Shown here one piece after another: positions 21,987 through 51,955 of a stretch of DNA of 64,000 bases. The stretch lies in contig JAGPYM010000028.1 of assembly GCA_020736575.1 (NCBI GenBank), positions 372,001-436,000 of the forward strand, in the 5' to 3' direction. Under the pieces are notes generated by a model that did no database searches, was not told the DNA's origin, and was given only the letters and a program-made list of their open reading frames with translations. The stretch is from Thelonectria olida (lineage: Eukaryota; Ascomycota; Sordariomycetes; Hypocreales; Nectriaceae). Both the position numbers and the translations under genes were made by a program. Position 1 is the stretch's first letter, and each line of letters starts with the position of its first letter.

Positions 21987-22135
21987 GTACGGATACACCA
22001 GACCCTCAAATTGATGGCGACTGATACATGAGCACCCGGGTGCCCAAATTATGTCAGCAGTCAGCCCCACGCCGGCCCCGCGCTCCACCTTCAGCGCGTT
22101 CGAGTTGCACACGTAAATGCCATCAAGCGCTTGAC

Positions 22136-23770: not shown

Positions 23771-25314
23771 CTAGTGAACGCTATTAGACCTTACTTCAGC
23801 TGAACTTGTCGCATCTGTATGCTGCGACACCGTCCAAACAGTTGGCAAGACAATAATCAGCGAACCCATTGACAAACCCCAAATCATAGCCAGCTGACTC
23901 ATCGGCGCAACCTTTAAGGCATTAATCCGCCATGCCATAGCCCCTCCCGTCGCCTGAAACGTCTTATACGCACCAACAAGAACAGCTGCGCGGCCTGCCG
24001 AGTTTGACTCGGTGCCAATCAGCCAGTAGCAGAAGCCTTGCCAGAGGGCATCGTACGCGCCGTAAAAGATATACAAGAAGATGGGACCGGTGCTAAGCGA
24101 GCCTTGCGTATAGTCGATATCTTGCTTCAGTCCTTTAGCCACCCGTGCATCCTGCCACCGCTGGAACGCGTAGCCACCACCCCAGATGGTCATGCCGGTG
24201 AAGAACAAAACGCACCAGCCGATGCGGGCACGCATTGGGCGTTTCAGACCAGGCAAATCAAGCAAGGCGCCGATGGCAAGGCCACCGGCCATCTGGGCTA
24301 TCCAATAAAGCGCACCGTTGAGACTGCGTGTGCGGATGTTGAATGTCAGCCCGTTGACGTCGTTTTGCTGGTAGCTGTAGAATACATTGGCGCAAAAGAA
24401 GAGCGGCAACATGCACGCGACGCGCCATTTCAACAGTGTGCGACTCGCCATCTCAATGGTTCCCTTGATTGACGACTTGTCTGTTTCCGTGGCTTCGTGC
24501 AACTGCGCTAGCCGAACTTCCTTGGGGTCACAGATGAAGACGCCCAACAGCCAGCCAACGAGCATAATTACCATCAGGGCGATGTACGTGCTGTCAGTGA
24601 CGGTGCCGCTCTTGCTGCGAAAGTTGAGCCCAAAGGACGCCAGTGACCCAACACCGCCGCCGAGGTTGAAGATGATCCAGAAGACGGCAATGGCTCGTCC
24701 TTTCTGGGACTCCCCCACGTACGTTGTCATAATGGCACCCTGTACAACCCAGAGAAAGGATGCTCCAATACCGAGGATCGCTCCAGCAGCGATAACAAAC
24801 GTGCCATTCTGATGATCTGTTTTTTGTGTCAGTCCAGTCAACAAGCCGCTAGCATTCCTACGCGTGGAAAAGGGAAGAAGAGCTCGTACGATTGAAGTTC
24901 AGTAGGCTACCGCTATACAAGGCATATGTCCAGCCACCGATGAGAAAACACACCCGTGGGCCCAAGTACGAGAAAATCGGCCCGACGAAGAAGAGGGCGG
25001 TGGCTGCAGTGGTCGAGAGAAGGGCGACAGTTGCATTCGCGGCGACAGTTGGGTCAACCTGCCCGGATCCTCCTAGACCGCTGAGAGCATTATACATCTG
25101 ATGTTGACATTAGCATGCTTTTGGTGTGTTGAGAACGGCAGTAGCATACGCCAGGTAGGCAGAAGCAGACAAAACTGATCAACGAGATCTGCGTCCATGG
25201 ATGGGAGTAGAGGCGCGTAATTTTGGATTTTGACTGAAGCTGGCCCTCCTCAATGCCGGCTGGTAGAGGCTCGAGAGCAACGCGCTCCTCGATTGATTGC
25301 AGTTTCTCGTTCAT
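23771..25314 (-). CDS. UNC93-like major-facilitator transporter
   Basis: My model is complement(23771..24816, 24890..25097, 25150..25314), 472 aa, introns of 73 and 52 bp. It has about eleven hydrophobic segments. The sequence MYNALSGLGGSGQVDP after the first helix and LWVVQGAIMTTYVGESQKGRAIAVFW are hallmarks of fungal UNC93/DUF895 membrane proteins. Substrates of this family in fungi are unknown. It shares a 483-bp divergent promoter, with three TCGGAGTG motifs, with the MurQ-kinase gene, so I infer a role in moving an amino sugar or breakdown product of the pathway. It is the leftmost cluster gene. Confidence 0.88.
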
Positions 25315-25797
25315 CTTTGCTCTTAAGGCGACAATTGGTACTTGACGGACAGACTGGAGATGAAAATATGCGGGGCGATTGTCAGGGACCTTTTAAGGTG
25401 GGAGTTACTGGTATATGGAAATAGTCGTGTGGCTGGCGAAGTGCTGAATCGCAGATAATGGTCGGAGTGATCTTTATCATCGGAGTGATTGTCGGAGTGC
25501 CTGTCGGACAGAACCTATGAGAGCACACACGACCTTGGACAACCATGAATAAATGCAGATAACATATTAGGGAGGCATCGGCGTATACAGTAGGCTCTTG
25601 TAAGATCCACATCGGACACTACGTGACATCAAGGACGCCCGAAGAATTATTAACATGCCACATCATGATTCCCCATCGGCAATTAGGCGATAGGATGCTA
25701 TTTTACCGAGTCTTCGGTACCAACAAGGTCTTCGTTATGCTCCCGGATTCGGACTAGCAATATCAGCAGGGGACTTCATTCTTGGCGATATGCCTCC
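25315..25797. promoter_or_regulatory. Divergent promoter: UNC93-like / MurQ-kinase
   Basis: Three copies of TCGGAGTG at 25462, 25480 and 25492 (spacing 18 and 12 bp) lie between the two gene starts. A related TCGGAC occurs at 25504. The same motif recurs at the other four divergent promoters of the cluster. CGG-centred sites are typical for Zn2Cys6 regulators such as the one encoded at 46.6-49.1 kb. Confidence 0.6.
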
Positions 25798-25851
25798 GTG
25801 TCTTGTAATCATCCGCTAGGGATTGCTTGGGTTGCCGGCAATCTTCTCTCT

Positions 25852-27946
25852 ATGTTGCCCTCAAAGGCCATGGAAGCTCTCAACACTGCCCCAGGAGCCA
25901 TTGATTTGAGTGGTCTCCAAACTGAGTCTCGCAATTCGACGAGTATGGACATAGATCGAATATCGACGATTGATCTGGTTCGAGTGATGAACCGAGAGGA
26001 TGCATCCGTAGCCCCAGCCGTGGTGCCCTGCTTGGAGGCAACTGCTAGGGCAATCGATATCTTGGCAGAGCGTGTGCGCCTCGGTGGCCGGGTCTTCTAC
26101 ATTGGCGCCGGCACGTCTGGGCGATTAGGTGTTCTCGACGCCTCCGAGATTCCGCCTACCTACTCAGCTCCTCCCGGCCAGTTCGTCGCTCTCATGGCGG
26201 GCGGAGACAGAGCTATCCGCAGCGCTGTTGAAGGTGCCGAAGATGACTACAACGGCGCAGCACGGGACCTCGCCTCCTTACAGCTAGATCCAAAGATGGA
26301 CAGCCTCATCGGCATTGCGGCATCCGGGAGAACACCGTATGTGCTTGGCGGCATGGCGTATGCAAAAGCTCGAGGCTGCGTGACTGTCGGCATCGTATGC
26401 GTGCGGCCTAGCGCGATGGAAGCGGCCAGCAATGCGGATATCGTCATCGCGCCTGTGACGGGCCCCGAGGTTATGACCGGAAGTACGAGGATGAAGGCTG
26501 GTACGGCAACGAAGTTGGTACTCAATATGATTAGCACGGGAATCATGATTAGGGTCGGGAAGACGTACGGCAATTTGGTATGAATGACCCAGTCTACACT
26601 TGTACACGGACTGAACGCTTATCGCGGCATAGATGATCGATCTAAAAGCGACAAACCTCAAACTGAAGCAGAGAGCCAAGAACATATTGCGATCTGTTGG
26701 AGGCGCATTCTGTCCCCAGTCAGACCAAGAGATAGAGGCACTCCTGGAAGAGTGCGAAGGCAGTGTTAAACTCGCAGCGGCGGCAATGATGCTGCAGAAA
26801 CCCGTCCACTTCGCGCACCATGCATTGGAGAGCAACGGCGGTTCTCTAGCCAGAGTCGTTGAGGACCCGGGACGGCAACATGAACCAATCCCAAACGGAC
26901 CTGCCGATCCAGATGCCGAAAGCTTCGTTGTCGCGGTAGACGCGGGCGGTACCAGCTGCAGTGTTGTTCTCATGGACAGATCCCGCCATTCATGGACAGC
27001 TCAAGGCGGACCTTGCAACGTCGCAACAGTAGGCATTGAAGCGGCCATGGCTATCATCTCAGAGTCGGTGCAACGTGCGGTGAACGCACACCCTACACGA
27101 TCCGCCCAGCCTCTCTCGTCAATCCCGATATCCCACGCCTGGGTAGGCATGGCAGGTTACGACCGTGCTACGCCGAAGCCACCGATTGAGAACCAGCTAG
27201 CGACAATGCTTGGTGTTAAGGATGGCAGTCGACTGCGAGTCACAGCTGACGTCGACCTGCTTACTGCCTCGGTGTCTGACAACCCACTTGTCAAGTCTGC
27301 CATAGTCTTAATTGCAGGGACGGGTTCCGTTGCGATGAGGTTCAGACGCGAGGCCAACGGTCGCTTTATTCGCACCGCCCGAGTTGGCGGCTGGGGTCAC
27401 GCGCTGGGCGATGATGGTTCGGGGTATTGGATGGGTCGGATGGGCCTGAGGGCTGCTCTAGCTGCCCTGGATGTAGAGAGATTGCACAGGACTATTGCAC
27501 AACAAGATGATAGTCGACGAGATATTAGCAACGACGGCTTCGTGGAACAGATACTGGCTCACATCGTTGACTCCTCCAACTCGCCAGAGGGAGCCGCATG
27601 GGATCTCGTCACACACGCAACAAAACACGGAATCAAAGGTATTGCCGAGTTTTCTAGGATCGTCCTAGACAACTATACAACATCACCCGCGGCAAGAGCC
27701 ATAGCCAATGACGGAGCTCGAAGTCTGGCAGACTTGGTGGAAATGTTGGCGCTGGAGCCGGGTATCAATAGCCCTAACACCGTCCTTGTTTTAGCTGGAG
27801 GTCTGACGGGAAGCGAGCTTTACCGACGGCTTATTACCAAGCATCTATTAGATCGCAGCATCGACTTCTCGTCGGTTCAGACCGTGGAACAGCCCGCCCT
27901 CGCTGCGGCTGCCACGCTTTGTCAAGAAATGCACGAGACGGACTAG
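25852..27946 (+). CDS. murQ-like: MurNAc-6-phosphate etherase fused to BadF-type amino-sugar kinase
   Basis: My model is join(25852..26577, 26633..27946), 679 aa, one 55-bp intron joining KTYGNL to [15 protein letters not shown]. In-frame ATGs also lie at 25798 and 25870. Residues 1-320 are MurQ (SIS fold): [26 protein letters not shown] (with the catalytic Glu position), [26 protein letters not shown] and [18 protein letters not shown]. From residue ~338 a BadF/BcrA-type kinase follows: [12 protein letters not shown] (phosphate loop 1), [25 protein letters not shown]. Predicted reactions are phosphorylation of MurNAc (and/or GlcNAc) and cleavage of the D-lactyl ether to GlcNAc-6-phosphate. 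Both steps are cytosolic; no signal peptide. Fungi make no MurNAc, so the substrate must be bacterial. Confidence 0.93.
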
Positions 27947-28201
27947 TTGGAGACCCTAGCGTTTGTTACGCTCATCAGAATTAGAGGATCTTTTTCAATC
28001 GTCGAAAACAGAGGGCGATTTCATAATTGTATTCGACTTCAAAGTTCTTGTTTTACATTCTCTTCACAGTTCCAACTAATTCGCAGCTATGCCATTTGCC
28101 CCGAACAGTGTCCGTGAGATCTTCTATGTTCCGCTGACCCTATAATTATAACGGCCCAGGTGGCCCGCATGAGTGCGTTCACCGCGCCACGAGGGGTGCT
28201 C
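27947..28201. other. Convergent 3' gap
   Basis: 255 bp between the ends of the MurQ-kinase and NamZ genes, presumably shared terminator space. No motif is identified. Confidence 0.5.
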
Positions 28202-29741: not shown

Positions 29742-30403
29742 GGTTTAGTCGGTTGAAATCAAAGACAACTATTTTGGGCGGAAGCTGAGTAGTTTGATGG
29801 AACCAAGGGTGAGATTTCAGGAAAATGTATCTATATAGTACCCCTATTAAGAGGAAGGAGTACGACTAGTTGATGAGAAACGGGTCGCCAGGAATAGCTT
29901 AGGCTATTGATCCAGACGTAGACTCTGGCGCGATTATTCCACTGGGAGCTTCAGCCGAGAACATCTGGCCTAGAAACAACACCACCAAGCATAATCCACG
30001 TGAATCGTTTTTCAAGGTTGCCTCTGTTACGTTACAAGCCAACAACTATCGCAATATCCTATCTATTCTAAGGTCCCATACTTGGGGACGTATCTACGGA
30101 TAGTGGTGATAGGTACGTAGCATCGGAGTATTGCGGGTAATGTTCCTGTCGCCGAGACTCCGACCTCGAGGCCCGATTCGGAGAGAGTCCATCACGCCGA
30201 AAAACCGAGTGACGGGGAAACTAGCAAGGGAAAGCATGCTCACCAACAGGACGCCTAGGTGAGGAAGAATATCAAGTGGCGCTTTATCCCGAGGCTGGTG
30301 ACTGGATGCGTCCATGTACAAATGCGAGGCGATTCATCCAGCACGAGGCTATCAATTCGCACGGTAAAGTCTTTTGCTTGGGTACTACGAATCGACCAAC
30401 ACA
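29742..30403. promoter_or_regulatory. Divergent promoter: NamZ / NagZ-like
   Basis: TCGGAGT at 30123-30129 and its reverse complement ACTCCGA at 30157-30163. A partial site TCGGAG lies at 30178. The rest shows no recognisable feature. Confidence 0.55.
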
Positions 30404-31519
30404 ATGATTATTCCTACAGCAGCTACTCGATCATTTCTGATCGGCCTTGCGATCTTCTCTACTGGCCAGGCTTCTCGAGTTGGCCACTCGCCTTCGCATG
30501 AGGACCTATCTGTTCTTGCCGGACAACATGTCATCTACACTTATCCCGGCATCACCCCGCCTGACAGACTTTACGATCTCCTCCGTGCGGGCAAAGTCGG
30601 GGGCCTCATTCTCTTCCGAGAAAACATCGACCAGACCAATTTGACCAATACCGCTGTTATGGTGGCCGGGTTGCAGCAGGCCTATGCCAAGTCACCCGCT
30701 TACGGGGGCTTTCCGCTGCCCATCATGGCGGACCAAGAGGGCGGTTCTGTGAAGCGTATCACCAATGGCGGGCCGTTTCAGTCAGCCAAGAAGATGGGTG
30801 CCTCGTTAGATCCCGCCGCCGCATCGGCTAAAGGAGGCAGTGATGCAGCCGACGCACTCATTGCAGCTGGGATCAATATCAATCTTGCCCCAGTCCTTGA
30901 TGTGTACCGTGCAGCCGACAACTTCATGGACCACTGGGAACGCTCGTTTGGGAATACGTCTTCTCTTGTCAGCACCTGTGTCGTGCCGTTCATCAAGGCC
31001 CTTCAAGGAAAAGGCATCGTGGCGACAGCAAAGCACTTCCCCGGCAACGGTGCCAACCCGGCTGGAAATGACACGGATGCCGGTGTCGTTTCCCTGGACA
31101 TGCCCCTTCATGAAATTCGCGCCGTGGATGAGGTGCCCTACCGCGCGGCTTTCAAGGCCGGCCTTCGCTTGATCATGGCATCGTGGGTCAAGTATACCGC
31201 CATGGACGATAGACCGGTAGGCATAAGCAAGAAATGGATTCGCGGAGAACTGCGAGGTAGATTGGGTTTCGATGGTGTAGTGATGACGGATGCGCTTGGA
31301 GCAGGAGCCGTGAAGCAGTACGGTGACTGGTCCACCGTAGCTCTTCTGGCCAAGCAAGCGGGTGTGGATTTCATTCTTTGCGCTTCAAGAAACTTGACTC
31401 AAGGAGAATTGGCGATGCAAGGCATTGTCCAAGGTTTGAGGAATGGCCACCTGTCTCGACACGACCTTGACGCTTCCACGGCTCGTATTATGGCTCTTCG
31501 CGAAACCCTCCTGCTCTAG
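30404..31519 (+). CDS. nagZ-like: Secreted GH3 beta-N-acetylhexosaminidase, NagZ-like
   Basis: 371 aa, no intron. The start at 30404 gives a signal peptide (SFLIGLAIFSTGQAS); an in-frame ATG 30 bp upstream would precede it with hydrophilic residues. GH3 single-domain features: IMADQEGGSVKRI (108-119), KHFPGNG (210-216), and the nucleophile Asp296 in VVMTDALGAGAV. The loop that in NagZ carries the Asp-His general-acid pair reads NDTDAG here, with no His at that position; this resembles the actinobacterial GH3 subgroup. Predicted role: remove GlcNAc from muropeptides outside the cell. The catalytic mechanism or exact substrate may differ from that of classical NagZ. Confidence 0.9.
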   Translation: MIIPTAATRSFLIGLAIFSTGQASRVGHSPSHEDLSVLAGQHVIYTYPGITPPDRLYDLLRAGKVGGLILFRENIDQTNLTNTAVMVAGLQQAYAKSPAYGGFPLPIMADQEGGSVKRITNGGPFQSAKKMGASLDPAAASAKGGSDAADALIAAGININLAPVLDVYRAADNFMDHWERSFGNTSSLVSTCVVPFIKALQGKGIVATAKHFPGNGANPAGNDTDAGVVSLDMPLHEIRAVDEVPYRAAFKAGLRLIMASWVKYTAMDDRPVGISKKWIRGELRGRLGFDGVVMTDALGAGAVKQYGDWSTVALLAKQAGVDFILCASRNLTQGELAMQGIVQGLRNGHLSRHDLDASTARIMALRETLLL

Positions 31520-31910: not shown

Positions 31911-34900
31911 TTATAAAGCCTTAAAGATTGATTCTTCAAGGGAACATCGATCAGCAGCTCCGTGTACCATCGACCGAAAGACACCATCCTCGATAGCCAT
32001 AAGATGATGGGCAGGGCCAGACTCAACCAACCTTCCCGAATCAAGAACAAGAATAGCATCAAAATCGACAACCGTACTCAAGCGGTGGGCAATGACTAGC
32101 ATTGTGGTATCGCTACGACTAGCTTCCTCTCGAATGGCCCTTTGGATCAGGGCATCTGTGGTAATGTCCACACCAGATGTCGCTTCGTCAAGCACCAGAA
32201 ACTTTGGCTGAGTGAGGAAAGCACGACAGAGACTGAGTAGTTGACGCTGACCGGCTGAGAGACTCGAGCCTTTTTCTGAGATGGCCGAAGACAAAGATGC
32301 AAAGATGTTCTTATCTTTTGCTGCCGCATCTGTCCGCTCAGTGGGTACGTTGAGCAACTGGAGACGTTCCAAGGCTTGGTACAGCTCTGCATCTGTATGC
32401 TTGCCATGGGGATCCAAGTTTGATCGAATGGTACCTGAGAAGAAGATGGGGTCTTGCGGGATGATTTGCAACCGGCTGCGCAGATCCTCCAACTTGAGAG
32501 TGGAAATGTCAATCCCGTCGATCCAGATGGATCCTTCTCGAGCCTCGAGAAATCGAAACAATGCGAGAGTTAGAGACGACTTCCCAGCTCCGGTCCTCCC
32601 AACTACTCCAACTCTCTGCCCAGCTTCTATGGTAAAGCCAATGTTCTTCAAAACAGGAGGAAGCTGCCCAAAGCCAACGGACAGGTCTCGGACCTCGACT
32701 TCCCCTCTCCGGGGCCATGCTTCAGGGGCATCATGACCTCCCTGGTTCTCGAGGTCCATATTTTCGTACTCAATGACTCGTTCCACTGAGCTCATACTCA
32801 ATTCAACGTTGGTGTATTGACGGACAGTCCAAAGAAGGGCAGAAGGGTACTGAATGGCAAAGCTGAGGACAAATCCGACAATAGAGACTTCTACTCCAGG
32901 CAGTAAAACAACCAACGTGGCTGTCAGTACACAGTAGAGTGTTCCGGTAAGATTCATGCGAAGGTTGAACCACCGGTTGAACAGCCACAGGTGCCAAGAG
33001 GCCTGACCGTGCTGGTCAAGGAGCCCGTACATGCGAGAAACATACAAAGAGACGTTTGAAAATGCACGAATTGTCGTCAACCCGGTCAAGCTCGAGCCAA
33101 ATTGTTCTAGCACGGGGCTGATGGCAGCGCTCTCAAGTCGTTTGATCTGTCGTGCGGCCGCTAGATATCTGGGGGCGTAGTAGCACGCGCCGACTACCGG
33201 GATGAGCGAGAATACGAGCGTGAGGGGCGAGGCGACAGTTCCAGAGATGGCAATGCCGACGACCTCGAACAGGCGGTGCGACAAAGCACCGATGTCATAA
33301 CTCAGCTCCGAGTCGACTAAGCTCATGTCTGCTGCAAAGCGATTCAGCACGCGGCCAACAGGCACACTATCAAACCACTGAATAGGAGCATGCAAAACAG
33401 AAAATAACAGCCCGTCGAAGAGTGCTCGGGAAGCTCGAATCGAAGCCGAAAGGATCAAGAAGTACCTAGTCGACCCTGCAAGGCAGGAGAGGAACGAGAT
33501 CAGGACATAAACGGACAGATAGTAGCCAAGATTACCAGTGGCATTTAGCTGATAATTATCGAGGTTTTGACCGATAGAGACGCTGAATGGCTGGAACTTC
33601 AGGCCATACGTGTTGGCCATCTCCGATCCTTTCAACACCGATTTGGTCCAAAGGTTAACCCACCAGGGCTGACACCATGAGTTAGCCAATTCCAGTAAAA
33701 TTTGGCACGTTCAACTAGGAGACTTACCCTTGCCAGATTGAGAGCCATGTACGAAATGTAAGCCATTATGATGAACGACCATATCCAAATATTACCTCCG
33801 GCCTTGATGTATCTCATGTACACTCTCGTTTTGACTGCACCTGTTGCTGAAGTTTCATTCCCGAGATCGTGCCGTTCTGGACGAGTCATATTAACGGTGA
33901 CATGATCCCTAGAAGCCTCGGGTTCAGATGTCTCAGAGTCAATCAAATCACCGTTAGCATAAATATCGATCAAGGTCGGAGTTGACATTGGGGTCGGAGG
34001 CATTGAATCTTGAACACTGGTTTGCCAAGCTCCCGAGACTCCAAGGGTGATGGCAAGATTTGCATATTGACTGCACAATTCCGTATGGTGCGTAACGAGG
34101 ATCCTCGTTCGATTCTCAGCCAAGGGACCGGCTAGCGCCCGTTCGCACAAGTGACGTGCGGTGTGGACATCGACGGCACCAAAGATGTCGTCGAGCAGGA
34201 GTATTCCCGCTCTCGAATACAAGGCCCTGGCCAATGATATCCTCCATTTCTGCCCTCCGCTGAGTCGGATGCCATGGGGCCCGATTCTAGTAAGTTCTCC
34301 ATGCGGAAACTTGCCAACGTCGACCTCCAAGTCGCAGGCAGCCAGTGTTTGCCGGTACCGGGATTCACAGTAAGGAAGGCCAAATAGAATGTTGTCCCTG
34401 ACTGTCATGTTCTCTACCCATGGGGTTTGGGGGACAAAACCAATTCTGGACTTGACAATCCAAGTCGCCTGGGCCGCCCTATTATCTGGGCAGTCGGTTG
34501 CCAGGGGCTGTGCAGGGATACGGACTGCGCCGGAAAAGATGTCGCATTCTCCCAGTATGGCAGAGAGGACGAGGCTTTTCCCGCTCCCTGTCTTCCCCGA
34601 TATAACGCTGAAGCCGCCAGGCGGGAAAGAAAAAGACAAATCACTCAGGACAAATCGGTCCTCAAGCCGCGCATCATCGTCGGCGTGGGGATACGCGATT
34701 GTGGCGTTGTCGAATATTATGCAATCCGCATGTTCTTCCGATTGGATCGTTGCTGGCTCAAAATCATCGGCGTTGAGGAATTCTTCAATCCTTTCCAAGC
34801 TGACATATGCCTCCATCAGGGATGTAGCCATGTTCGGTAGATTCGCAAAGGATATTTCAAGAGACCCAAATGCTGCGATAGCAGTAAAAGCCACGGAGGG

Positions 34901-36627
34901 CGTTAATGGTCCGTTCACCTTGACATATGTCCCTAGGGACACAATGGACAATATTATCGGACCAAGCATGCAAATCGCGAGTAGTCCAATGTCGTATAGG
35001 AAACAGGTCCATTGAGCCCTGAGCTCCGAACGTCGCATGATGGAGATCCTAGTGTGCCAAAGGCCTTCGTGAGCCCCGAGCTTCACCTCTCGGATTCCAT
35101 TCAAGGCTTCGCTGACAGTTGCAATCCTCTCATCGCGAGAAGCCATCAAAGCTGTCTGAGACTTGGCAAACTGTTTGCTGAGACGGATGCCGACTGGCAC
35201 TATCATCATCGCAACAGACAGTCCCGCTATCGTACTTCTCCACCCAAGCAACGAGACTAGAAACATGCAGGCCACTACAAGCTTGAAAAAGATAGCAGTG
35301 GTGGTGTAGCTGTATGCCGCCTCGTTGCTGACGCGTTTCACGTCCACAGCCACAAGGGTGCTGGGGTTTTGCCCCGACACCCGCGAGGTCGTTATACCTG
35401 GCTCCTCAAGCTCATCCTCGCTCACTCGCATCTCCTCTTTTGTTGCTGTCTTTATTATGACATGGGATCTCATGGCTTTCGCGTAGACGGCGGCAGATAG
35501 CTGCTTACGTATCGGAATCGCGATTCTGGAAATCACCAGCCAGTAGAGCCAAGACTCGGCCACTGTGCTCAGGGCCATGAAGCCACCCAGAGCCATGACC
35601 CAGACTAAAGCACTGGTTGTTTGTGATCCGTTCTGTTCAAGTTTTTCCAGGCATTTGAGGATATGAAAAAGGCTGAACTGAGGAGCAAAGCCCAGGGAGA
35701 CTGTTGCCAAAGTGAGAACCTGTTGAACCACCAGAGCTGGCCAATGAATAGATAGAACGGCTGAGAGTAGTCCACAATGCATCAGGGCTCGTTCCAGTTG
35801 CCCATGAAGGTGAGACGATCGAGCTCGCTCTGGCAGCCTTGGCAGGTCATTGGGTCCAAGACTTTGCTTCTCAGCCACGGTCCGCATTGAGTCGGCGGCC
35901 CAGGAAAAGGCGAGGACATTCCAAATGGAAACACTATCCTGGCGGTCGACGGGATCGTTTTCGACGTACACATCCGGTCGGCGTGCAAGGAATAGGTGGC
36001 AGAGCGAACACAGAAAGCCCCCAAGAAGTTGTCCAATAGCAAGGATAGGGACCATGTCATCCGCAGAGTGAGAGTCACTCGTGACCCAGTCATTCTCCGT
36101 CGCCACGACGTACGGGACGACCATCGATATGACGTTTATGTAGAAGCCGTAGAGAAGAGCACATGTTCTTGGGCCCGGAGCAAAGACGAACCGTAGTGAG
36201 ATCGAGTGGCTTAAGGCTAGGGTCTGTGTTTGTGCTGGTGTTAGCTATGCCCAAAATGGGACTGGATTTCAAGATGACATGTTAAACTCACATAAAGCCC
36301 GGTTTGAATTGCGTGCGGAAAGACCGAGTATCTGCTCGAGTATACTAGGATCAAAAAAAGAGATAGCAGGGACAAAACGAAGTCAACAACCAAAGTCCCA
36401 ATGATGATTGTTGAAATTGCTGCATTGGAGAACCGTTTTAGTGATTCTACCGTTGCTCTTCCATTGTTGTCTTCGTAAATATCGCTTTCTTGACCCTGGC
36501 TTGTTTGACGGGATAGATGGCAGACCACGGGCCAGCCAAGAACGGCCAAGAGGCATGCTACTCCTAGCCATAACCAAGCTGGACTAGATCCAAAAGAGGC
36601 GGATAATCCGAGTTCCGATTTTGCCAT
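31911..36627 (-). CDS. ABCC (MRP)-type full ABC transporter
   Basis: My model is complement(31911..33668, 33728..36244, 36292..36627), 1536 aa, introns of 59 and 47 bp. It starts with an extra membrane domain (TMD0: WLWLGVACLLAVL, IIIGTLVVDFVLSLLSLFLILV). The order is then TMD1, NBD1 (Walker A GKTGSGKS, signature LSGGQK, Walker B ILLLDDIFGAVD), TMD2, and NBD2 (GRTGAGKSS, LSAGQRQLL, FLVLDEATSGVD). Both ATPase sites look complete apart from a degenerate NBD1 Walker B (Asp-Asp), normal for ABCC. The family exports conjugates, peptides or drugs from the cytosol, or loads the vacuole. Placement inside the cluster suggests handling of muropeptides or protection from bacterial compounds; this is inference. 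Confidence 0.93.
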
Positions 36628-37098
36628 GTTGAATACTCAAACAACAGCAAGGAGATTGTCAAGACGGTAGTGAAAGTCGGGCGTTGAGGCTGCATCAGAT
36701 ACGAAGTGATTGTGCATTATGTGATGGCGGCTCTTCATTCACGACTTCAACAACTCTAAAACTCGGCTTTATCGTAGAGCAGTTGCAAGTTTTCTATTCT
36801 TAGATTTCTTGTAATCAACACGATGTTCTCCGCAGCCCGGCGACAATAGTGTCGACTCCGATTACTCCGATCGATTACTCCGATGAGACCATCACTCCGA
36901 ACACAAGAAATGCCGCGACTAACACCGCCCTCATCGGGATCGACATAACCTCGCACATAATTTCCCGCCCCACATTAGTAAAGCAAGGCAGACGCTCACC
37001 AGATCCACGACTTCTTAGTCATATTGAAAGTGGGCGACCGCCCGGTTTTCCCATTCTGAGACCGTATTAGGAGTGGCACTGTTCCCTAGCAACTCATC
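36628..37098. promoter_or_regulatory. Divergent promoter: ABC transporter / GGT
   Basis: Four ACTCCGA sites at 36855, 36864, 36877 and 36894 fall within 46 bp. These are the reverse complement of TCGGAGT, and three are part of ATTACTCCGA or ATCACTCCGA. It is the densest array of this motif in the window. Confidence 0.65.
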
Positions 37099-41535: not shown

Positions 41536-44028
41536 TCACGGCTGCATAGCAGGTGGCAAAGTAGAAGGTGGGAAACAGCGATCTGTTGCAGCACTGTTCC
41601 CCCACCATGTGGGAAATTTGGTGTTTGTCAGACTGATGGTAAAGACCATAACTGTTTGCATAATCTGAGAGCCGCAATCCAGACCGACACTGGTCAGATA
41701 ATTGTACTTGCGGAACCAGACAGGATGGTAGCGTTGGATGTAACCCATGCTGCGTTCAGCGGTTAGCGAGGGTGTGCTTGGAGCGGGTCTATGTGCTAAC
41801 AAGGGATTACTCACAAGACAAAGGCAACAATGGCAGATGTCATTAGATTCGTCGTTCCATACACCGGGAACCAAGTTGCGCCAAACATGATGACCACCGG
41901 GTTGAAGCAGTGCTCAATGTTCCACGTAGGCTTCCACCGCTGGACGAGATATGCAATGAGGACAAGTCCAGGGCCAACCAGGAAGCCGTAGTAGATGTAG
42001 GAGTACTCGGACCCTGAGCCGAAGAAGGATTCGGGGCCGAGCACTCCCCAAATGACGGACATGGAGTAGAAATTGCGGCTCTTGAGCGCGAGCCAGGATG
42101 GGGACTCTTTGACGCCGGTCAGGACATCGACACCGACGCGGTCGATGATGACGCGCATGAGGCCGTAATTGATGAACGGGCCGAGCAAGGTTCCATAAAT
42201 CTGAGCCGCAAATAGCTCTCTCTCCGGGATCTTCATGTAGAACCCAAACTTGTAGTCAGAGCAGAGGTTCAATGTCTGATCCAAGACCTGGCGGCCAAAC
42301 ACCAACGTGGCCAGCATAGCTCTCGGGTGGCCTTTGAAGAGAGCGCCGGCAATGAGCTCGCTAAAGTAGGTCATACCAACCTGGATGTTTGCGATGCCGA
42401 AGAGAATGCCGCTGGGGAAGGTGAAGAGGAGAGAGATGACACTGATCAGTATAAAACCCCACCAGGGAAGACCCCAATCGCCACCGTAGAGAGATGCGAG
42501 GGACAGGGCAGTGGCAATGGCCAAGATGGCAAGATACCACCAGTGGGGAACACGCTTGAAGTCTGAAACAACTCGAAAATAAGGGTCGTCGTCATACGAC
42601 TTGCGGCCCTTGGACCAGGTCTCTCGAATGGCACTCCAGCTCTCGTTGCCATACCACAGCAGTGCAAAGGCGATGGCACCGGTGGAGGAGGCGAATCCCC
42701 AGAAGAAGGTCATGGCATATGAAGTGGACCAATGAGGCGACGAGTACTCAGCCATGGCAGTGTAGTTTCCAGTGCCGTCAGGGGTGAGAACACGCGAGAC
42801 GTTGTATGTTGCTCCCGTGGAATCGAACGTGCCCGATGACATCGCTGGATAGTTTTGGCTGTCACGGGCGTTGGCAAAGTAGAGAATGGGATATAGAAAC
42901 CAGCACGAGAAGACGGCACCCGCAACTTGCGACGCGGTCGACCATAGAGGGGTGTAGAGAGGTGCAAAGAAGGATGCGTAGTTCCAGTCGAGAGAAATGT
43001 CCAGCATGCCGAATCCCTTCGATCCAGAGCCGATAAGGTACGCAATCCAGTTTCCGTGGCCCATGTAGCAGAGCAAGGGCAGCGAACCCAGCATTGGCCA
43101 TATCAGGGAGGGGAACCACTGGTAGCAGAAGGTGGCAGTCGCAACGATGGCGAAGTACTTTACCGACTTTGCCGTCCTTGCAGGGTTCTTGTGCATGGCG
43201 TTGAAAAGCGCAACGTTGGGCAGCGCAACTGGGTAGAAGATCTTGGGGGGGCGAACGACGATGTCGCGGAACAGGCCGACGAAGCCGTAGCCCAGCAATT
43301 GGGTGGAAAGGAGGAAGAGAATGGACCACCCAGCGCTGATTCTATGACCTAGATCAAGATGTGTTGGTGAATGATGCATAAATCGAGCTTCGCGGATCCC
43401 AAATACATACCGTAGTACAGCTCCAGGGCAGAGATCGGTCCAAGACCGTAAGCTGTATGCTGGCTACCCCAGACGGCGACAACAATGAGTGCATGCTCCT
43501 TCGAGTTCCACGGCCCAGGGTTGAGGCTCCATTCGTATCCAAAGGTCGTCCACTTCCTCGTTGGCAGCCATCTAGCCATAGCCATGCCCGTCCACCAAGA
43601 AAGCAGCTGGATAGTTACACCCGACAGGGTAGTGCTGTACGGCTTGAAGAAGTAGAATGTCGAGATGATACAGCCAACGCTCACCCAGAATCCACCGAGG
43701 ACCCAAAAGCGAAAGGTCAAGATTGGTTCCCTTGTGTCACAAATCAGCAGAGGCTTGGGGACTGCGCCCTGGCACCTCGAACTCACGTGGGGTCATTGTG
43801 GAGAGAGACTGTCTTCGCGACAGCAGGAACGGGGTAGTCTCTAAGGCGAGGGTCAACCCACTCGTCAGCATCGTCTGGGATGTGAACCTCGGCGACCATG
43901 CCCATGTCAACGGAAGGAGGCTTGGACTCGGCCGAGAAAACATTCTTTTCCGCGTCTTGAATACCGGTGACAGTCTCCACCGGCTCACCAGACTTCTCAA
44001 TCGTCTTGGGATCATGTTCAGCCTTCAT
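41536..44028 (-). CDS. OPT-family oligopeptide transporter
   Basis: My model is complement(41536..41749, 41815..43348, 43411..43730, 43787..44028), 769 aa, introns of 65, 62 and 56 bp. An acidic cytosolic N-terminus ends DYPVPAVAKTVSLHNDPT, then many hydrophobic helices. The OPT signature SLNPGPWNSKEHALIVVAVWGSQ is present, as are LYFANARDSQNYP and the closing WWGNSAATDRCFPPSTLP. OPT proteins import tri- to hexapeptides with protons, so this one could bring in stem peptides freed by the AmiE-like enzyme. Its promoter, shared with that gene, carries two TCGGAGT sites. Confidence 0.94.
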
Positions 44029-44547: not shown

Positions 44548-45875
44548 ATGAGATCCTTACCTCCAAAGACAACGTTTTTTCAAATCGCTACATCCACAAT
44601 CTTTTGGCTGTCTGCTCTTGCAGCGCCAAGATCCAAGTCAGATGTTCTCATTTATGGAGAACCTGAGTCTGTGGGCATGGAGTCCAAGCCTCTGCTGGAA
44701 ATGAAGAGCAACTTCACCGCCTACACCCACCCCGGCAACTATAGCTCTTTCACACACTATCAAACTCACCCCATCCAGCCGGGAGGCGCAGTCATGGTGG
44801 CGCGTGAAGGCACCATTGTCCATTCATTTGCGTTCGGCAAGAGAAATATCTACGCGAATGTTTCAGGCGCCCATTTGCCCAGCCACCTCCAGGAAGATGC
44901 AACCTTAGACACGGTCTACGACATGGCGAGCGTGACCAAGGTCTTCACCTCCGTTGCGGCACTGCGAGAGATGGATGCCGGAAGGATCCGTCTCAACGAC
45001 ACGGTGGCCAAGCATGTTCCCGGATTCGAGGTCAACGGAAAGGAAGATATCACAATCCGTATGCTCGTTAGCCATACGAGCGGCTTCGATGCCGATCCTA
45101 ACCCGCCACTATACTCGAGCTCCTATACGACATACGAGCAGAGGATCGAGGCCATTATCACGCAAGGATTGAAGAATACACCGGGGAGCACGTACCTCTA
45201 CTCTGACCTAAACTTTATGTCGTTAATGCTTGTGTTGGAGAATGTCACGGGTCGGAAGCTTGATGATCTGATCCGTGATTTCACCCAGCCAATGGGCATG
45301 CACTCAACCTTCTTCAACCGAAACAACCTCGAGGGCAGGCACAATCCCTTCTGGGTCCGGTCAGCCGCGCAAGAGTTTCAGATTGGGCCAATCGACCCTC
45401 TCCGGCCACAACCCGTCCGCGGAACTGTTCACGACGAGAACGCCTGGGCCTTGGGGGTGTATCTGGGCACGCAGGCCTTTTCTCAACCGTTCCAGACGCT
45501 GCCAAATTCTGCCAGATGATCCTGAACAACGGCACGTACGGGGGCCATCGAATTCTCTCCCATGAAGCAGTTGATCTCATCTATACCAATTTGAACGCTC
45601 GTTTCAGCAACATTGACTCCTCTCACGGCGTCGGCTTCGAGCTGAACCAATTCTACACCGACGGGCCTCTGAACACGACGTTGGTTGCGTCGCACACTGG
45701 CTATACAGGAACAAGCTTGGCCATCGACCGGGGCCGAAATCTGTTTTACATTCAGTTTGCGAACCGCGTGCATCCTTCCCGACTGTGGAGCAGTAACAAT
45801 CTTCTTCGCGAAGCTCTTGGGTACTGGGTTGGAACGAGTTTGGGACTCAAACTTCCGTTCCCGCTGAAAAAGTGA
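44548..45875 (+). pseudogene. amiE-like: AmiE-like serine hydrolase (beta-lactamase fold), one-base frameshift
   Basis: Both frames together give about 442 aa, with no intron. A signal peptide covers residues ~1-26. Active-site motifs of the class C/PBP4* fold are intact: S128-V-T-K131 in MASVTKVF, Y218-S-D in YLYSDLNF, and HTGYTG near the C-terminus. The frame breaks in the run GGGGG at 45453-45457. One more G would join NAWALG to GVSGHAGLFSTV, as in relatives, and the second frame is then open to 45875. No splice pair explains it. Either the sequence lost a base in the homopolymer or the allele is newly broken. Bacillus AmiE (YbbE) frees stem peptides from MurNAc; that role is inferred here. 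Confidence 0.88.
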
Positions 45876-46612: not shown

Positions 46613-49054
46613 CTAGAGACCAAAGGCATCCAATTCAAAAGATCCAATCCTACAAAGCGTTAGCGAACCTGGTTCTTGCTCGGGACAGCGGTATGATTTA
46701 CCAGGACTCCGGGTTAAGAAGCCAATGATCCATCCCCGGATCTTGAAGCGGCGACCAGGAATGTGACGCGTAGTTTTGAGTCTGCGCGTCGGCCTGGGCC
46801 ATCCCGGGAATGCGCAGAACAGTTTCAATTACCTCCTTCAACACTTTTTTGGCTTGTTGAAAGAGTTTGTAGTTTCCGTCCCCAGGCTCGTGCAGATAGT
46901 CCATGTGGCCCATAAGGATGGATAGGTCTTGGACAATCTTCACCTGAGCAACCGTGCTCTGCCATTGCCGAGACGGGTGGAGAGGGCCGGGCATCATGCA
47001 ACGCGCCAGAGCCCCGGCGGCAGGCAGTCCGCACGCAGCCACCTTGATGAATAAGTGTCTTTGTCACAAATATCGGGGAATCGTGTAAATGTTGGCAAGA
47101 GACTTACTCTCCAGGCGAGTGAGCTTAGTCCCAACTTGTTCAAGCGCTCACGTCGAATCATGGCCTCATTGACCCATGCGAGCAAATCTCCAGAGATGAT
47201 GTAGAGGGCGTCGACGTCGGCAGTTCCGTGGACCGTAGCCGCCCACTCAACTAAGAAGACCGCTTGGAGGTAAATCAGCCGGATCAAATATAGACTGTCC
47301 ACCTTGTCTGCAGACCTGCCCCTGGCCCAAACCTCGGAAGCAGACACTGTAAGATGACTAGGCAAGCTGTTCCACGCTTCTTCGATTCGCACTCGCAGCG
47401 TCCTTTTTCCAGTGTCAGCATCACAGGGTACTTTCGCTCAGGAGGAAGGGGGAAGCGCTTCACCGAATAAGCTGTTGCCTCTCTTTTACTTCGGGCCCGA
47501 GCATTGCTTCCAATATTTCTTCACGGATTTTAGATGCCATAACTGACCATCTGAGCGCCGAAAAAATGCGGATCTCGCCTTGCTTGTTCCAGCCATTCCG
47601 GTCTAGATGAGACAGCTCCTCATTAAGAGGCTCGGCGGTCAATCTGAGCGCTTCCCGGTCAATATCCAAAGGCATAGGAATCATGCAGTGGCGCTTGCTG
47701 ATGCGGGGAGGTCTTCCAAGAAAGGCTGCAAAACTAATATCCAGTACATAGACGCGAGCAAATATTTGTTTTCGAAGCTCGACAAGGAAGACGGGCATTT
47801 GGGGGTCCTTGTCTAGTCGCTGATGAAGTCCACGGGCGAAGAGGGCGCTGATGGCATCGTTCAGCCTGCGCCACGTGTGGAAGCCTTATAGACTGTCAAA
47901 TAGTGTCAAGCGTGGAATGGCATTAGAGAGTGGCATACTTTGATCTCCAAAATAAACAGAGTAAAATAAAAAGGTCTCGTGTAGAAAAATGACAAAAACG
48001 TCGTTCAAAACGTCGAGCGACTCACAGATTGATGCGCAGCGAGTACACGCATCGAGGAGACATTTGCAAGTAGCTTGCCTCTCTTTCTCCGTGTCGAAAG
48101 CTGCATGTGGCGCTCGAATGTCTGAAGCGGCATTGCTGCTCTCACGGTAAGCCAAGCCCGGCTGTAGTCGAGATGCTTCCAGCTTACCCTGCCAGCGCCA
48201 GGACTGTCCCGATAGTTTCCCACCTCAGATTCCGGCCGGTGTGGCGGGTCACAAAGTCATCAAGAGTCTTTGCCTGTGAGACCTCGACGGGTACGCTTCC
48301 TGCATTAAAAAGACGATGAGATAACTGTGTCAAATGCGATCGCTTATCTGGAGAAGAAGCTTCATTGCACAGCTCGCTCGTGATTGTACGAAGGAACGAT
48401 GCAACCAAGAACGAACCTGCGTGTGATTCCAAGTCACGCTCAACCCAATGGTCAAAGATTCTCTGCAGGGTACCTCTCATGACGATGTCTGCGACCATTT
48501 CCAGGACTTGCACTCCTTGCTCTACAATGGCTGTGCCTCCTCGCAAGATGGCTTGGCACTGGGCTGATTCGATATCTTCGTCACCGCTGTTGTCCATGTC
48601 GCCCCCCGATGGTGTCGACTGGTTCGAGTCGTAGTCATTCGCAGCTCCATACTCGATTGCTTCCAGGATTGTGGTTGAACTCGAAAGCCCTTGAAATCCG
48701 GGATCCGGATACAGGGTGACACGCAGAGCGTGGGGCAGGGCAACGGGAAACTCACTCGAGGAATTTGCAAACCACGGCTGCGGGGTCCTTCATGGGGGAA
48801 GGGTTAACAGAAATGTGTGGCGTCAAGGCTGTGCCTGGATGTGGAGCTTACCCAGGTTGCGGCTCGGCCACAGACGCAGTCTTGCGAGCTCTCTTGAACG
48901 GGTTTGTCCGATAGACACAGCCATCGGGCCTCCCCCGCCTGGCGCAGCGAGAACACACGGGACGGTTGTGGTCGCAGGCCAACTTGGACATGCGGCAGGG
49001 CTCGCATGACGGGACCCTGATGCGACGATTTGATCTGTTGGCGAGATTCAGCAT
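46613..49054 (-). CDS. Zn2Cys6 transcription factor with fungal-TF middle homology domain; likely cluster regulator
   Basis: My seven-exon model is complement(46613..46649, 46702..47042, 47108..47402, 47464..47884, 47939..48138, 48188..48787, 48852..49054), 698 aa; introns of 49-65 bp, all phases close. The zinc cluster is CEPCRMSKLACDHNRPVCSRCARRGRPDGC (C-x2-C-x6-C-x6-C-x2-C-x8-C), followed by a basic patch NPFKRARK. The fungal_trans domain spans FLHETFLFYSVYFGDQ, the FHTWRRLNDAISALFARGLHQ helix, and RPPRISKRHC. It is the only regulator inside the cluster. Its own promoter carries TCGGAGTGAAG. The splice sites at 48188/48138 are the least certain. Confidence 0.85.
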
Positions 49055-49665
49055 GAGGAGTTCGGGGGATCAAGCGGGGATCGGAGTGAAGAGGTGAATA
49101 TCCAACGACCGGCCAGGGCCGACACTTTGAGTAAAAGTCCTGTCAACGACGTGCCAACAGGCCGGAGAACAGTGCGCGATTACGCCGACAGAAGCACCCA
49201 GGTCATTGGTTGGGGTTAATTCCTTATCTTCGGCTAAAATGACTCAAATGAGGGGTTGCCGGTAATACGAAACACTCAATGTCCTCTCAGGGATAAGGCT
49301 TGTCCAAATTGATTTGCTTTACCTGTTTGACCGAGACTTATGATCCCTAGCGTCTGTAGGTACGGATACATGGCAATTGGAACGGAAGCGTCAACTGATT
49401 ACCCCGACATTCGATCCGGTGCCCGATAGGAAAGTAGTGAAGCTCGAGTGATTATGAGAAGGGGTAAAGATGCCGCAATTGCGTGTGCGGTACTGTCGAG
49501 GTCAGTAGATAAGCCCAGTTGTAAAGGTAACGTTCCCAGCCAACTAGAAAATTACTAAATAGTCCATTATCCGCACAGCCGAGCGCCCATCCTGAGCAGT
49601 TAATCACAATAAACCGGCTAGTTGCAAAGTACAAGTTCATATCCCTGCCTATATCGTTGCCCAGA
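49055..49665. promoter_or_regulatory. Divergent promoter: regulator / GH25 lysozyme
   Basis: One TCGGAGT at 49081-49087 within GATCGGAGTGAAG. The rest is featureless. Confidence 0.5.
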
Positions 49666-50415
49666 ATGCCCTCTTTTAAATCATTTTCCGTTGGGCTGTG
49701 CTTGATCCTTGGTGCACCCTTCGCCAAAGCCGCGGTTCAAGGATTTGATATTTCGCATTATCAATCTTCAGTCGATTTTCAAGCGGCCTACAGCTCGGGA
49801 GCTCGCTTTGCCATAATCAAAGTAATACAATAACCCTTACTATCGCTCACAGAGGCCACAGTAACATTAACCTCCCATCAGGCTACCGAAGGCACCACCT
49901 TTCTTGACCCTGCCTTCACCGTCCACTACCAGGCTGGCAAAGCAGCCGGGCTGATATGCGGCTCGTATCACTTTGCGCGGCCCGCATCATCCACCGGTTC
50001 AGCGCAAGCCAAGTACTTCATTTCGAACGGTGGTAGGTGGTCCAAAGATGGGAGCACTCTGCCTGGCATGGTTGATTTGGAGTTTAACCCAAGCGGAGAC
50101 AGCTGCTATGGGCTGTCCACTACTAGCATGGTAGCCTGGATCTCCGACTTTGTTAATACATATCAGGCGAGCGAAGGTCGATACCCTTTGCTCTATACGA
50201 GCACAAGCTGGTGGAATAGGTGCACGGGCAGTAGTGAGGCCTTCGGCGCAACGTGCCCACTCGTTGTCGCACGATACTCCAGCTCCGTAGGCGCACTGCC
50301 CGCAGGCTGGTTGACTTATACAATTTGGCAGAATTCAGGCAGCTATATATATGGCGGAGACTCTGATCTTTTTAACGGTTCGGAGGCGCAACTTCAAAGC
50401 TTAGCTAGTAGTTAA
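49666..50415 (+). CDS. Secreted GH25 (Chalaropsis-type) lysozyme
   Basis: My model is join(49666..49821, 49882..50415), 229 aa, one 60-bp intron. A signal peptide lies at residues 1-22 (VGLCLILGAPFAKA). The mature enzyme begins AVQGFDISHYQ, with the Asp of the active site. The catalytic pair Asp117 and Glu119 sits in MVDLEF. GSYHFARP, YPLLYTST, VVARYSS and GWLTYTIWQ complete the fold. GH25 muramidases cut the MurNAc-GlcNAc bond of the glycan strand. This would be the first, extracellular step of the cluster pathway. It is the rightmost intact cluster gene. Confidence 0.95.

Positions 50416-51955
<1,540 letters not shown>

What the first reader, a model, noticed from the sequence alone, without database searches (positions are those of the whole stretch)
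23771..50415. A complete bacterial-cell-wall (peptidoglycan) catabolism gene cluster in a fungus
Eleven contiguous genes cover nearly every step for using peptidoglycan as food: GH25 lysozyme, NamZ, NagZ-like GH3, AmiE-like amidase, GGT, M19 dipeptidase, OPT, UNC93-type and ABCC transporters, MurQ-kinase fusion, and a pathway regulator. In Bacillus subtilis the recycling operon is murQ-murR-murP-amiE-nagZ-namZ. Four of those functions recur here side by side with fungal introns and eukaryotic transporters. Fungi make no MurNAc, so an etherase for MurNAc-6-phosphate only makes sense with bacterial substrate. I know of no described fungal cluster of this kind. The pathway assignment is inference from families and context.
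Basis: partly seen in the sequence, partly recalled or inferred. Interest (0 to 1): 0.96.

Follow-up and report, generated by a model that had tools for sequence, protein, structure and literature searches.

The report
Fungal cluster for eating bacterial walls
A fungus carries eleven neighbouring, apparently co-regulated genes that look like a kit for digesting bacterial cell wall and burning its signature sugar; if enzyme and growth tests agree, feeding on bacterial walls would be an organised fungal trait.

Summary
The window is Thelonectria olida. All eleven genes are at 23771-50415; each has a family over its Pfam cut-off and nine of eleven models have introns. MurQ-kinase, NamZ and GH25 match nowhere else in the 52.5-Mb genome; the best-scoring other matches to the GH3 and the amidase-like protein are 26% identical. 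New: the six promoter regions share 7-mer ATCGGAG (6 of 6) and its 8-mer (5 of 6), reached by 0 of 1500 shuffles, partly as direct repeats suited to a Zn2Cys6 regulator. This ties transporters and peptidases to the sugar genes. Later steps lie in the ordinary fungal GlcNAc cluster elsewhere.
Corrections: the GH3 lacks NagZ's D-[ST]-H motif; the amidase-like frame is broken in this assembly; the MurQ-kinase fusion is widespread in ascomycetes; the whole cluster is not kept together in most fungi that contig lengths let me judge; the nearest bacterial NamZ and GH3 listed are actinobacterial. Function is inferred, not shown. Best reading: inducible muropeptide/MurNAc catabolism, 0.8.

The parts
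23771..25314 (-). MFS/UNC93-type transporter, 472 aa, 3 exons; candidate sugar importer (substrate inferred)
   Evidence: MFS_1 56.1 bits, UNC-93 42.3 bits; model
25315..25851 (.). Divergent promoter of MFS and MurQ-kinase; ATCGGAGT at 25479, direct repeat TCGGAGT-N5-TCGGAG at 25480
25852..27946 (+). MurNAc-6-phosphate etherase (MurQ) fused to BadF/MurK-type sugar kinase, 679 aa, exons 25852-26577 and 26633-27946; no N-terminal hydrophobic segment, probably cytosolic
   Evidence: TIGR00274 over cut-off; best PDB MurQ 4s12, best kinase match 8zo3 MurNAc/GlcNAc kinase; only match in genome
28202..29741 (-). NamZ exo-beta-N-acetylmuramidase, 434 aa, 5 exons, hydrophobic N-terminus (secretion likely)
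   Evidence: NamZ_N 222.7 bits, NamZ_C 154 bits; only match in genome; fungal clade 100% SH-aLRT
29742..30403 (.). Divergent promoter of NamZ and GH3; ATCGGAGT at 30122
30404..31519 (+). GH3 glycosidase, 371 aa, intronless, probably secreted; KHFPGNGANPAGNDTD where NagZ has KHFPGxG...D[ST]H
31911..36627 (-). ABCC-type full ABC transporter, about 1529 aa, 3 exons; role unknown
   Evidence: two ABC_membrane + ABC_tran halves
36628..37098 (.). Divergent promoter of ABCC and GGT; three ATCGGAGT on the minus strand (36855-36884), direct repeat
37099..39015 (+). Gamma-glutamyltranspeptidase, 599 aa, 3 exons, one N-terminal membrane segment
   Evidence: 515.7 bits; other GGT matches in the genome
39472..40937 (-). 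M19 membrane-type dipeptidase, 447 aa, 3 exons
   Evidence: 325.4 bits; other M19 matches in the genome
40938..41535 (.). M19 upstream region; TCGGTGT-N5-TCGGAG at 41120, ATCGGAG at 41131
41536..44028 (-). OPT oligopeptide transporter, 766 aa, 4 exons; candidate importer of stem peptides (substrate inferred)
   Evidence: 441.9 bits
44029..44547 (.). Divergent promoter of OPT and the amidase-like gene; direct repeats at 44221 and 44234
44548..45875 (+). AmiE/YbbE-like serine hydrolase (beta-lactamase fold; SVTK, YSD, HTG motifs); reading frame changes at about 45450-45456
   Evidence: PF00144 166.5 bits; 36-40% identical to the gene following namZ in 10 actinobacterial loci; two-frame alignment
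46613..49054 (-). Zn2Cys6 transcription factor, about 629 aa (inner exons and 3' end approximate); candidate pathway regulator
   Evidence: Zn_clus 25.4 bits over cut-off 21, Fungal_trans 22.1 under cut-off 23
49055..49665 (.). Divergent promoter of the factor and GH25; ATCGGAGT at 49080
49666..50415 (+). GH25 muramidase, 229 aa, 2 exons, hydrophobic N-terminus (secretion likely)
   Evidence: 151.5 bits; only match in genome

Best explanation
This is a fungal catabolic gene cluster for bacterial peptidoglycan fragments. Proposed working: secreted GH25 cuts the glycan; the AmiE-like enzyme takes stem peptides off MurNAc; NamZ releases MurNAc and the GH3 (probably) GlcNAc from non-reducing ends; GGT and the M19 dipeptidase trim the peptides; OPT and the UNC93-type carrier bring peptides and sugar in; the cytosolic MurQ-kinase fusion phosphorylates MurNAc and removes lactate, giving GlcNAc-6-phosphate, which the ordinary fungal GlcNAc cluster (deacetylase, deaminase) turns into fructose-6-phosphate. 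A Zn2Cys6 factor in the cluster would switch the genes through TCGGNGT direct repeats. Shown: gene content, near-uniqueness in the genome, shared promoter motif, bacterial operon parallels, presence of the downstream genes. Inferred: every substrate, every transport step, and the link between factor and motif.
For: Each protein has a Pfam family over cut-off, MurQ also an NCBIfam equivalog. MurQ-kinase, NamZ and GH25 match once in the genome. Of 13 non-Streptomyces actinobacterial namZ loci, 13 hold at least one of MurQ, AmiE-like or GH3 nearby, and in 10 the AmiE-like match starts 61-272 bases after the namZ match; Terrabacter (L072) reads GH3, NamZ, AmiE-like, RpiR regulator, MurQ, further genes, BadF kinase. 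Promoters share ATCGGAG 6 of 6 and ATCGGAGT 5 of 6: 0 of 1500 shuffles reach either; of 2000 non-overlapping sets outside the cluster 7 and 2, and of 2000 coding sets 5 and 1, reach the 7- and 8-mer counts. TCGGNGTN{5,6}TCGGNG: 5 in the window, all in these promoters, 125 in the whole genome. Hydrophobic N-termini on NamZ, GH3, GH25 and the amidase-like protein, none on MurQ-kinase (crude hydropathy). nagA- and nagB-type genes present elsewhere.
Against: No expression, growth or enzyme data. The GH3 lacks the NagZ motif. The AmiE-like frame is broken. MurQ-kinase and NamZ share a contig in 1 of 7 fungal genomes that could be judged, the one being T. olida itself. The direct-repeat pattern was defined after seeing the sites and is not enriched genome-wide (125 against 178 for the reversed control); at 10-mer level the shared motif is not convincing (22 of 1500 shuffles). 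The nagA-type match is below its family cut-off. ABCC transporters are usually exporters (recalled).
Confidence: 0.8

Rival explanations
1. Antibacterial weaponry: the secreted enzymes serve to kill or fend off bacteria, and the intracellular part only cleans up products or senses them.
For: Eukaryotic GH25 and GH3 enzymes of bacterial origin are discussed as antibacterial (PMC4241558 passages; PMC12612818 passages).
Against: Killing does not need a MurNAc kinase, an etherase, an oligopeptide carrier or a dipeptidase sharing the promoter motif. The two roles can coexist.
Confidence: 0.12
2. The cluster acts on chitin or plant polymers; the MurQ-kinase and NamZ homologues have shifted function.
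For: The GH3 has no NagZ motif; a GH3 gene is often part of fungal GlcNAc clusters (PMC4950302 passages).
Against: The fungal GlcNAc genes sit at a separate locus without ATCGGAGT in the 18.5 kb read, and the GH3 there is a different gene, 26% identical. MurQ passes an equivalog cut-off; NamZ motifs are invariant over 16 hand-picked fungal and actinobacterial rows.
Confidence: 0.05
3. A decaying cluster: once a peptidoglycan pathway, now losing parts.
For: Frame break in the AmiE-like gene; a MULE transposase domain close to the cluster's left edge.
Against: Both halves of the AmiE-like gene stay open and conserved, the other ten models translate without internal stops, and promoter motifs are present; a one-base assembly error in a G run would explain the break.
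Confidence: 0.1
4. Bacterial contamination or an assembly join.
For: Nearest named non-fungal NamZ are bacterial.
Against: Introns in nine of eleven models, fungal transporters and regulator in between, three database proteins of T. olida listed with one 530,054-base contig, and fungal clades with 100% support for NamZ and MurQ.
Confidence: 0.01

Closest known systems
Bacterial peptidoglycan recycling operon (B. subtilis murQ-murR-murP-amiE-nagZ-ybbC; actinobacterial namZ loci)
   Same: MurQ, AmiE-like hydrolase, GH3 and NamZ/YbbC side by side with a regulator (that ybbC is namZ is recalled)
   Different: Eukaryotic host, introns, five divergent gene pairs, MurQ fused to a kinase instead of a PTS transporter, Zn2Cys6 instead of an RpiR-type regulator, GH3 of another subfamily, added GH25, GGT, M19, OPT, UNC93 and ABCC genes
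Fungal GlcNAc catabolic cluster (hxk3, dac1, dam1, nag3, ron1; Trichoderma reesei, PMC4950302)
   Same: Fungal amino-sugar catabolic cluster, often with its own regulator and a GH3 gene; it would supply the later steps here
   Different: Separate locus (contig C111), no ATCGGAGT in the 18.5 kb read, Ndt80-type regulator; 'muram' and 'etherase' occur 0 times in that paper's text
Horizontally acquired cell-wall genes of eukaryotes (GH25 across domains PMC4241558; Trichomonas toolkit PMC12612818; murQ in Camponotini ants PMC13320244)
   Same: Bacterial cell-wall enzymes in eukaryotes (passages); one paper reports a fungal GH25 and a GH2 gene likely transferred together
   Different: In the passages I saw, no physical cluster joins hydrolases, uptake and MurNAc-6-P etherase. 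The ant paper says murQ transfer had not been reported and is potentially unique to those ants

Membership tests
MurNAc-6-phosphate etherase (MurQ) | Passes TIGR00274 equivalog cut-off | tested here: met
   336.5 bits, cut-off 302
MurNAc-6-phosphate etherase (MurQ) | Conserved glutamates of ASE and EGAE motifs (catalytic role recalled) | tested here: met
   ASE at 97, EGAE at 127, aligned with 4s12 and 1nri
MurNAc-6-phosphate etherase (MurQ) | Cleaves MurNAc-6-P to GlcNAc-6-P and D-lactate | not testable with these tools
   needs enzyme assay
MurK-type MurNAc/GlcNAc kinase | BadF family with DAGGT/GTGS motifs and similarity to a known MurNAc/GlcNAc kinase | tested here: met
   PF01869 69.6 bits; 8zo3 at 53.7 bits; motifs. 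Specificity not tested; NCBIfam NagK_SO3507 50.7 bits is far below its cut-off 370
NamZ | NamZ_N and NamZ_C domains | tested here: met
   222.7 and 154 bits, cut-offs 26.9 and 25
NamZ | Motifs GPEHGFRG and SEGRG shared with bacterial NamZ | tested here: met
   invariant over 16 chosen rows
NagZ (GH3 beta-N-acetylglucosaminidase) | KHFPGxG...D-[ST]-H motif with catalytic histidine (motif recalled; PMC12612818 passages name a catalytic histidine) | tested here: not met
   KHFPGNGANPAGNDTD; D-[ST]-H in 0 and TD in 120 of the 120 listed relatives; the GH3 in 8 of 8 actinobacterial namZ loci with a GH3 match has DSH
NagZ (GH3 beta-N-acetylglucosaminidase) | PRK05337 equivalog cut-off | tested here: not met
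   140.1 bits, cut-off 207
AmiE (YbbE) N-acetylmuramoyl-L-alanine amidase | Homologous to the hydrolase encoded directly beside bacterial namZ | tested here: met
   36-40% identity over 352-445 aligned residues, directly downstream in 10 of 13 non-Streptomyces loci
AmiE (YbbE) N-acetylmuramoyl-L-alanine amidase | Intact reading frame | tested here: not met
   frame change at 45450-45456 in this assembly
AmiE (YbbE) N-acetylmuramoyl-L-alanine amidase | Direct similarity to B. subtilis AmiE, and amidase activity | not tested
   no B. subtilis AmiE sequence was obtained; no assay
GH25 muramidase | PF01183 with FDIS and DLE motifs | tested here: met
   151.5 bits, motifs
Fungal pathway-specific catabolic cluster | Regulator in the cluster and shared promoter motif | tested here: met
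Fungal pathway-specific catabolic cluster | Co-expression of the genes | not testable with these tools
   no expression data
Fungal pathway-specific catabolic cluster | Linkage kept in other fungi | tested here: inconclusive
   only contig lengths: NamZ+GH3 3 of 7, MurQ-kinase+NamZ 1 of 7, MurQ-kinase+GH3 3 of 9, T. olida included

The most novel reading that the evidence does not exclude
Catabolism of MurNAc is a widespread and overlooked trait of filamentous ascomycetes: a MurQ-kinase fusion, one supported fungal clade from Hypocreales to Eurotiales, lets these fungi feed on bacterial cell wall, and in T. olida the whole route is gathered in one regulon run by a Zn2Cys6 factor that senses a peptidoglycan-derived inducer.
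Probability: 0.5. Interest if true: 0.92.

Novelty: new variant of a known kind. Interest (0 to 1): 0.86.

Why it matters
Fungal lysozymes are known, but a MurNAc kinase-etherase under a common regulator would mean that a fungus uses peptidoglycan as carbon and nitrogen food. That bears on the turnover of bacterial remains in soil, fungus-bacterium competition around roots, and on how operon-like pathways are reassembled in eukaryotes. It is directly testable by growth, RNA-seq and single-gene deletion.

Tried and rejected
Transfer of a Bacillus-type operon as a block: not favoured; the named bacterial relatives listed for NamZ and GH3 are Actinomycetota, and the fungal GH3 is of another subfamily than the GH3 of actinobacterial namZ loci. 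MurQ-kinase fusion inherited ready-made from Actinomycetota: not seen in the 15 genomes or the 296 (one genome in both; at most 4 candidates per genome were scored, 80 of 296 had any match and 35 a match to the MurQ part at 1e-49 or better); the one frame that seems to hold both domains has the reverse order. Exact donor: not settled; NamZ bacteria and fungi are separate clades with long outgroup branches, and the MurQ tree does not place the fungal clade. A 59-base intron in the AmiE-like gene: rejected, because it would remove a stretch that bacterial homologues conserve in another frame. CGG triplet spacing: CGG-N9-CGG is in 5 of 6 promoters, 0 of 300 shuffles for that spacing, but 9 of 300 reach 5 at some one of 48 spacings tried. 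First control sets for the promoter motif were allowed to overlap (for k=7 and 8, 8 and 10 of 1000 outside, 34 and 40 of 1000 coding) and were replaced by non-overlapping ones. At k=10 the motif is not convincing (22 of 1500 shuffles; 41 and 39 of 2000 sets). Structure prediction of the GH3 could not be run. Rfam found nothing at gathering scores. No repeats of 40 bases or more in 20000-54000.

Papers: ten searches. None of the titles and abstract starts listed (some lists capped, e.g. 20 of 314) showed a fungal peptidoglycan or MurNAc catabolic cluster; one Monascus genome paper names a murQ gene in its chitin pathway section (PMC9159588, passage). The library lacks most subscription papers and the NamZ paper I asked for, so absence from print is not shown. 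Of PMC5061867, PMC4950302, PMC4241558, PMC12612818, PMC13320244, PMC13041923, PMC12168751 and PMC9159588 I saw passages; all others only as search listings.
Full report
What is there. The window is G000:C87:372001-436000 of a 52,528,275-base, 165-contig genome. Its MurQ-kinase and NamZ proteins match Thelonectria olida at 100% and the GH3 at 99%, each listed with a 530,054-base contig; T. olida is a Nectriaceae ascomycete. A splice-aware script and hand checking give eleven genes between 23771 and 50415. Ten lie as five divergent pairs: MFS/MurQ-kinase, NamZ/GH3, ABCC/GGT, OPT/AmiE-like, Zn2Cys6/GH25; M19 stands alone. My NamZ model starts at ATG 29741 and has a hydrophobic N-terminus; the database model (416 aa) begins 18 residues later and lacks it.

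How sure are the families. Pfam or NCBIfam hits are over cut-off for MurQ (TIGR00274), the kinase domain, NamZ (both domains), GH3, GGT, M19, beta-lactamase type, GH25, MFS/UNC-93, OPT, ABC halves and Zn_clus. Fungal_trans is slightly below its cut-off. The GH3 fails the NagZ tests: it is under the PRK05337 cut-off and carries KHFPGNGANPAGNDTD. Among the 120 listed relatives (of 597 hits) 120 have TD and 0 have D-[ST]-H in this stretch, whereas the GH3 matched in 8 of 8 actinobacterial namZ loci that have one reads KHFPGHGDTxxDSH. It keeps the TDAL stretch (nucleophile role recalled). It is best called a GH3 of unknown specificity.

Uniqueness. In the own genome MurQ-kinase, NamZ and GH25 match only here; for the GH3 and AmiE-like proteins the best-scoring other matches are 26% identical. 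M19 and GGT have further copies. The idealised chance of five single genes falling in 24.6 kb is about 2e-13, with the caveat of choosing them afterwards.

A shared promoter motif. In the six upstream regions (3398 bases) the 7-mer ATCGGAG is in 6 of 6 and ATCGGAGT in 5 of 6. Of 1500 dinucleotide shuffles none reaches either, 2 reach the 9-mer count and 22 the 10-mer count. Of 2000 non-overlapping sets of six segments outside the cluster, 7 and 2 reach the 7- and 8-mer counts; of 2000 sets from cluster coding sequence, 5 and 1. All 8 cluster copies of ATCGGAGT lie in these regions; 4 more lie elsewhere in the window. In several promoters the sites form direct repeats, TCGGNGT-N5/6-TCGGNG: 5 in the window against 0.04 expected, all in cluster promoters, 125 in the whole genome and 178 for the reversed control, so the pattern is not enriched genome-wide. 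At that density 0.06 would be expected in the cluster; the pattern was drawn from these sites, so that figure is descriptive. A looser look at CGG-N9-CGG gives 5 of 6 promoters, but 9 of 300 shuffles reach 5 at some one of 48 spacings. Direct CGG repeats suit a Zn2Cys6 dimer (recalled), and one such factor sits in the cluster.

Downstream steps. A nagA-type match (best piece 151 bits, below its cut-off of 225.65; three pieces, C111:1135766-1137043) and a nagB-type gene over cut-off (C111:1131313-1132134) lie together, beside frames that read, by eye, like a hexokinase and a GH3-GNAT protein (the GH3 part also). This is the arrangement of the fungal GlcNAc cluster described for Trichoderma reesei (PMC4950302 passages). 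A second nagB-type gene is on C86. No ATCGGAGT occurs in the 18.5 kb read there. So GlcNAc-6-phosphate made by MurQ has an outlet; joint control with the cluster is not indicated.

Bacterial parallels. Of the 80, 13 are not titled Streptomyces: 12 hold an AmiE-like match, 7 MurQ, 7 GH3, 13 at least one; the AmiE-like match directly follows namZ in 10 of 13. Of the 67 Streptomyces loci 1 holds an AmiE-like and 1 a GH3 match, none MurQ. Some stretches are short, so absences are weak. Terrabacter L072 reads GH3, NamZ, beta-lactamase type, RpiR regulator, MurQ, further genes, BadF kinase. B. subtilis carries murQ-murR-murP-amiE-nagZ-ybbC (PMC5061867 passages). This supports reading the fungal beta-lactamase-type protein as the amidase partner.

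Trees. Fungal NamZ (32 rows against 45 bacterial) and fungal MurQ (33 rows against 19 actinobacterial) each form one clade with 100% SH-aLRT (quick method, chosen rows, long outgroups). T. olida NamZ groups with Grosmannia and Sporothrix (99) rather than with other Hypocreales. The fungal MurQ rows reach to Aspergillus and Penicillium. Of the 120 listed MurQ-kinase relatives (of 7208 hits) 119 carry both Pfam domains. No fusion in the fungal order was seen in the genomes (limits under Tried and rejected).

Co-conservation in fungi. No tool opened other fungal genomes, so I compared the 'longest contig' lengths in the three lists of 120 proteins (of 7208, 7985 and 597 hits). Same length, hence probably same contig: NamZ and GH3 in T. 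olida, Talaromyces pinophilus, Pleurostoma richardsiae (3 of 7; different in Conoideocrella, Metarhizium rileyi, Purpureocillium lavendulum, Aspergillus sclerotialis); MurQ-kinase and NamZ in T. olida only (1 of 7; different in Pleurostoma, Conoideocrella, Helicocarpus, A. sclerotialis, two Beauveria bassiana strains); MurQ-kinase and GH3 in T. olida, Xylariaceae FL0594 (113 kb), FL1651 (2.1 Mb) (3 of 9; different in Pleurostoma, Conoideocrella, Penicillium lagena, Nemania FL0031, N. abortiva, A. sclerotialis). Without T. olida the counts are 2 of 6, 0 of 6 and 2 of 8. I dropped Aspergillus lentulus and B. bassiana ARSEF 2860 for the last pair because a row of each pools several sequences; their lengths differ, so counting them would give 3 of 11. 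Some kept rows pool sequences too (e.g. the T. pinophilus NamZ row, 27 members). The three NamZ-GH3 linkages are exactly those where the GH3 is 56% or more identical to the T. olida one. The full cluster is therefore not general; parts of it may be.

The AmiE-like gene. Bacterial homologues align across it in two frames, frame 1 up to about 45456 (to 45468 in two of four) and frame 3 from about 45450 (from 45363 in one of four). Both parts are open and conserved. A one-base error in a G run or a recent lesion are both possible. I left the frame as it is.

Verdict. Observation confirmed; interpretation right in kind, overstated in completeness and in its Bacillus comparison. The best reading is a regulated peptidoglycan/MurNAc catabolic cluster of a fungus (0.8). 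Ten paper searches listed no such cluster; an ant study of 2026 calls murQ transfer potentially unique to ants (PMC13320244 passages), though fungal proteins already bear the etherase name in databases. I file it as a new variant of a known kind: a bacterial recycling pathway rebuilt as a fungal regulon.

Noticed in passing
window 45440-45470: Frame change in the AmiE-like gene within a conserved stretch beside a run of G; error or lesion undecided.
   Followed up: partly
window 22025-23730: MULE transposase domain at 22708-23397 with adjoining open frames up to about 40 bases from the cluster's first gene; frames at 353-1487 and 2768-4263 also read like transposases (by eye only).
   Followed up: partly
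window 50734-51372: GH43-like piece just beyond GH25, possibly a remnant.
   Followed up: partly
window 60411-62524: Long minus-strand frame that reads like a LINE-type reverse transcriptase (by eye, no family search).
   Followed up: no
fungal and actinobacterial GH3 proteins P0241-P0360: A GH3 subfamily with a TD motif instead of NagZ's D-[ST]-H in 120 of 120 listed relatives; I saw no characterised member.
   Followed up: partly
genome handle G111, contig C30:163842-165476: Actinobacterial open frame of 677 aa that seems to hold kinase and MurQ in the reverse order to the fungal fusion.
   Followed up: no
NamZ tree: T. olida NamZ is closest to Grosmannia and Sporothrix rather than to other Hypocreales, hinting at transfer between fungi or lost paralogues.
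   Followed up: no
G000:C86:120991-121695: Second nagB-type deaminase gene apart from the GlcNAc cluster.
   Followed up: no
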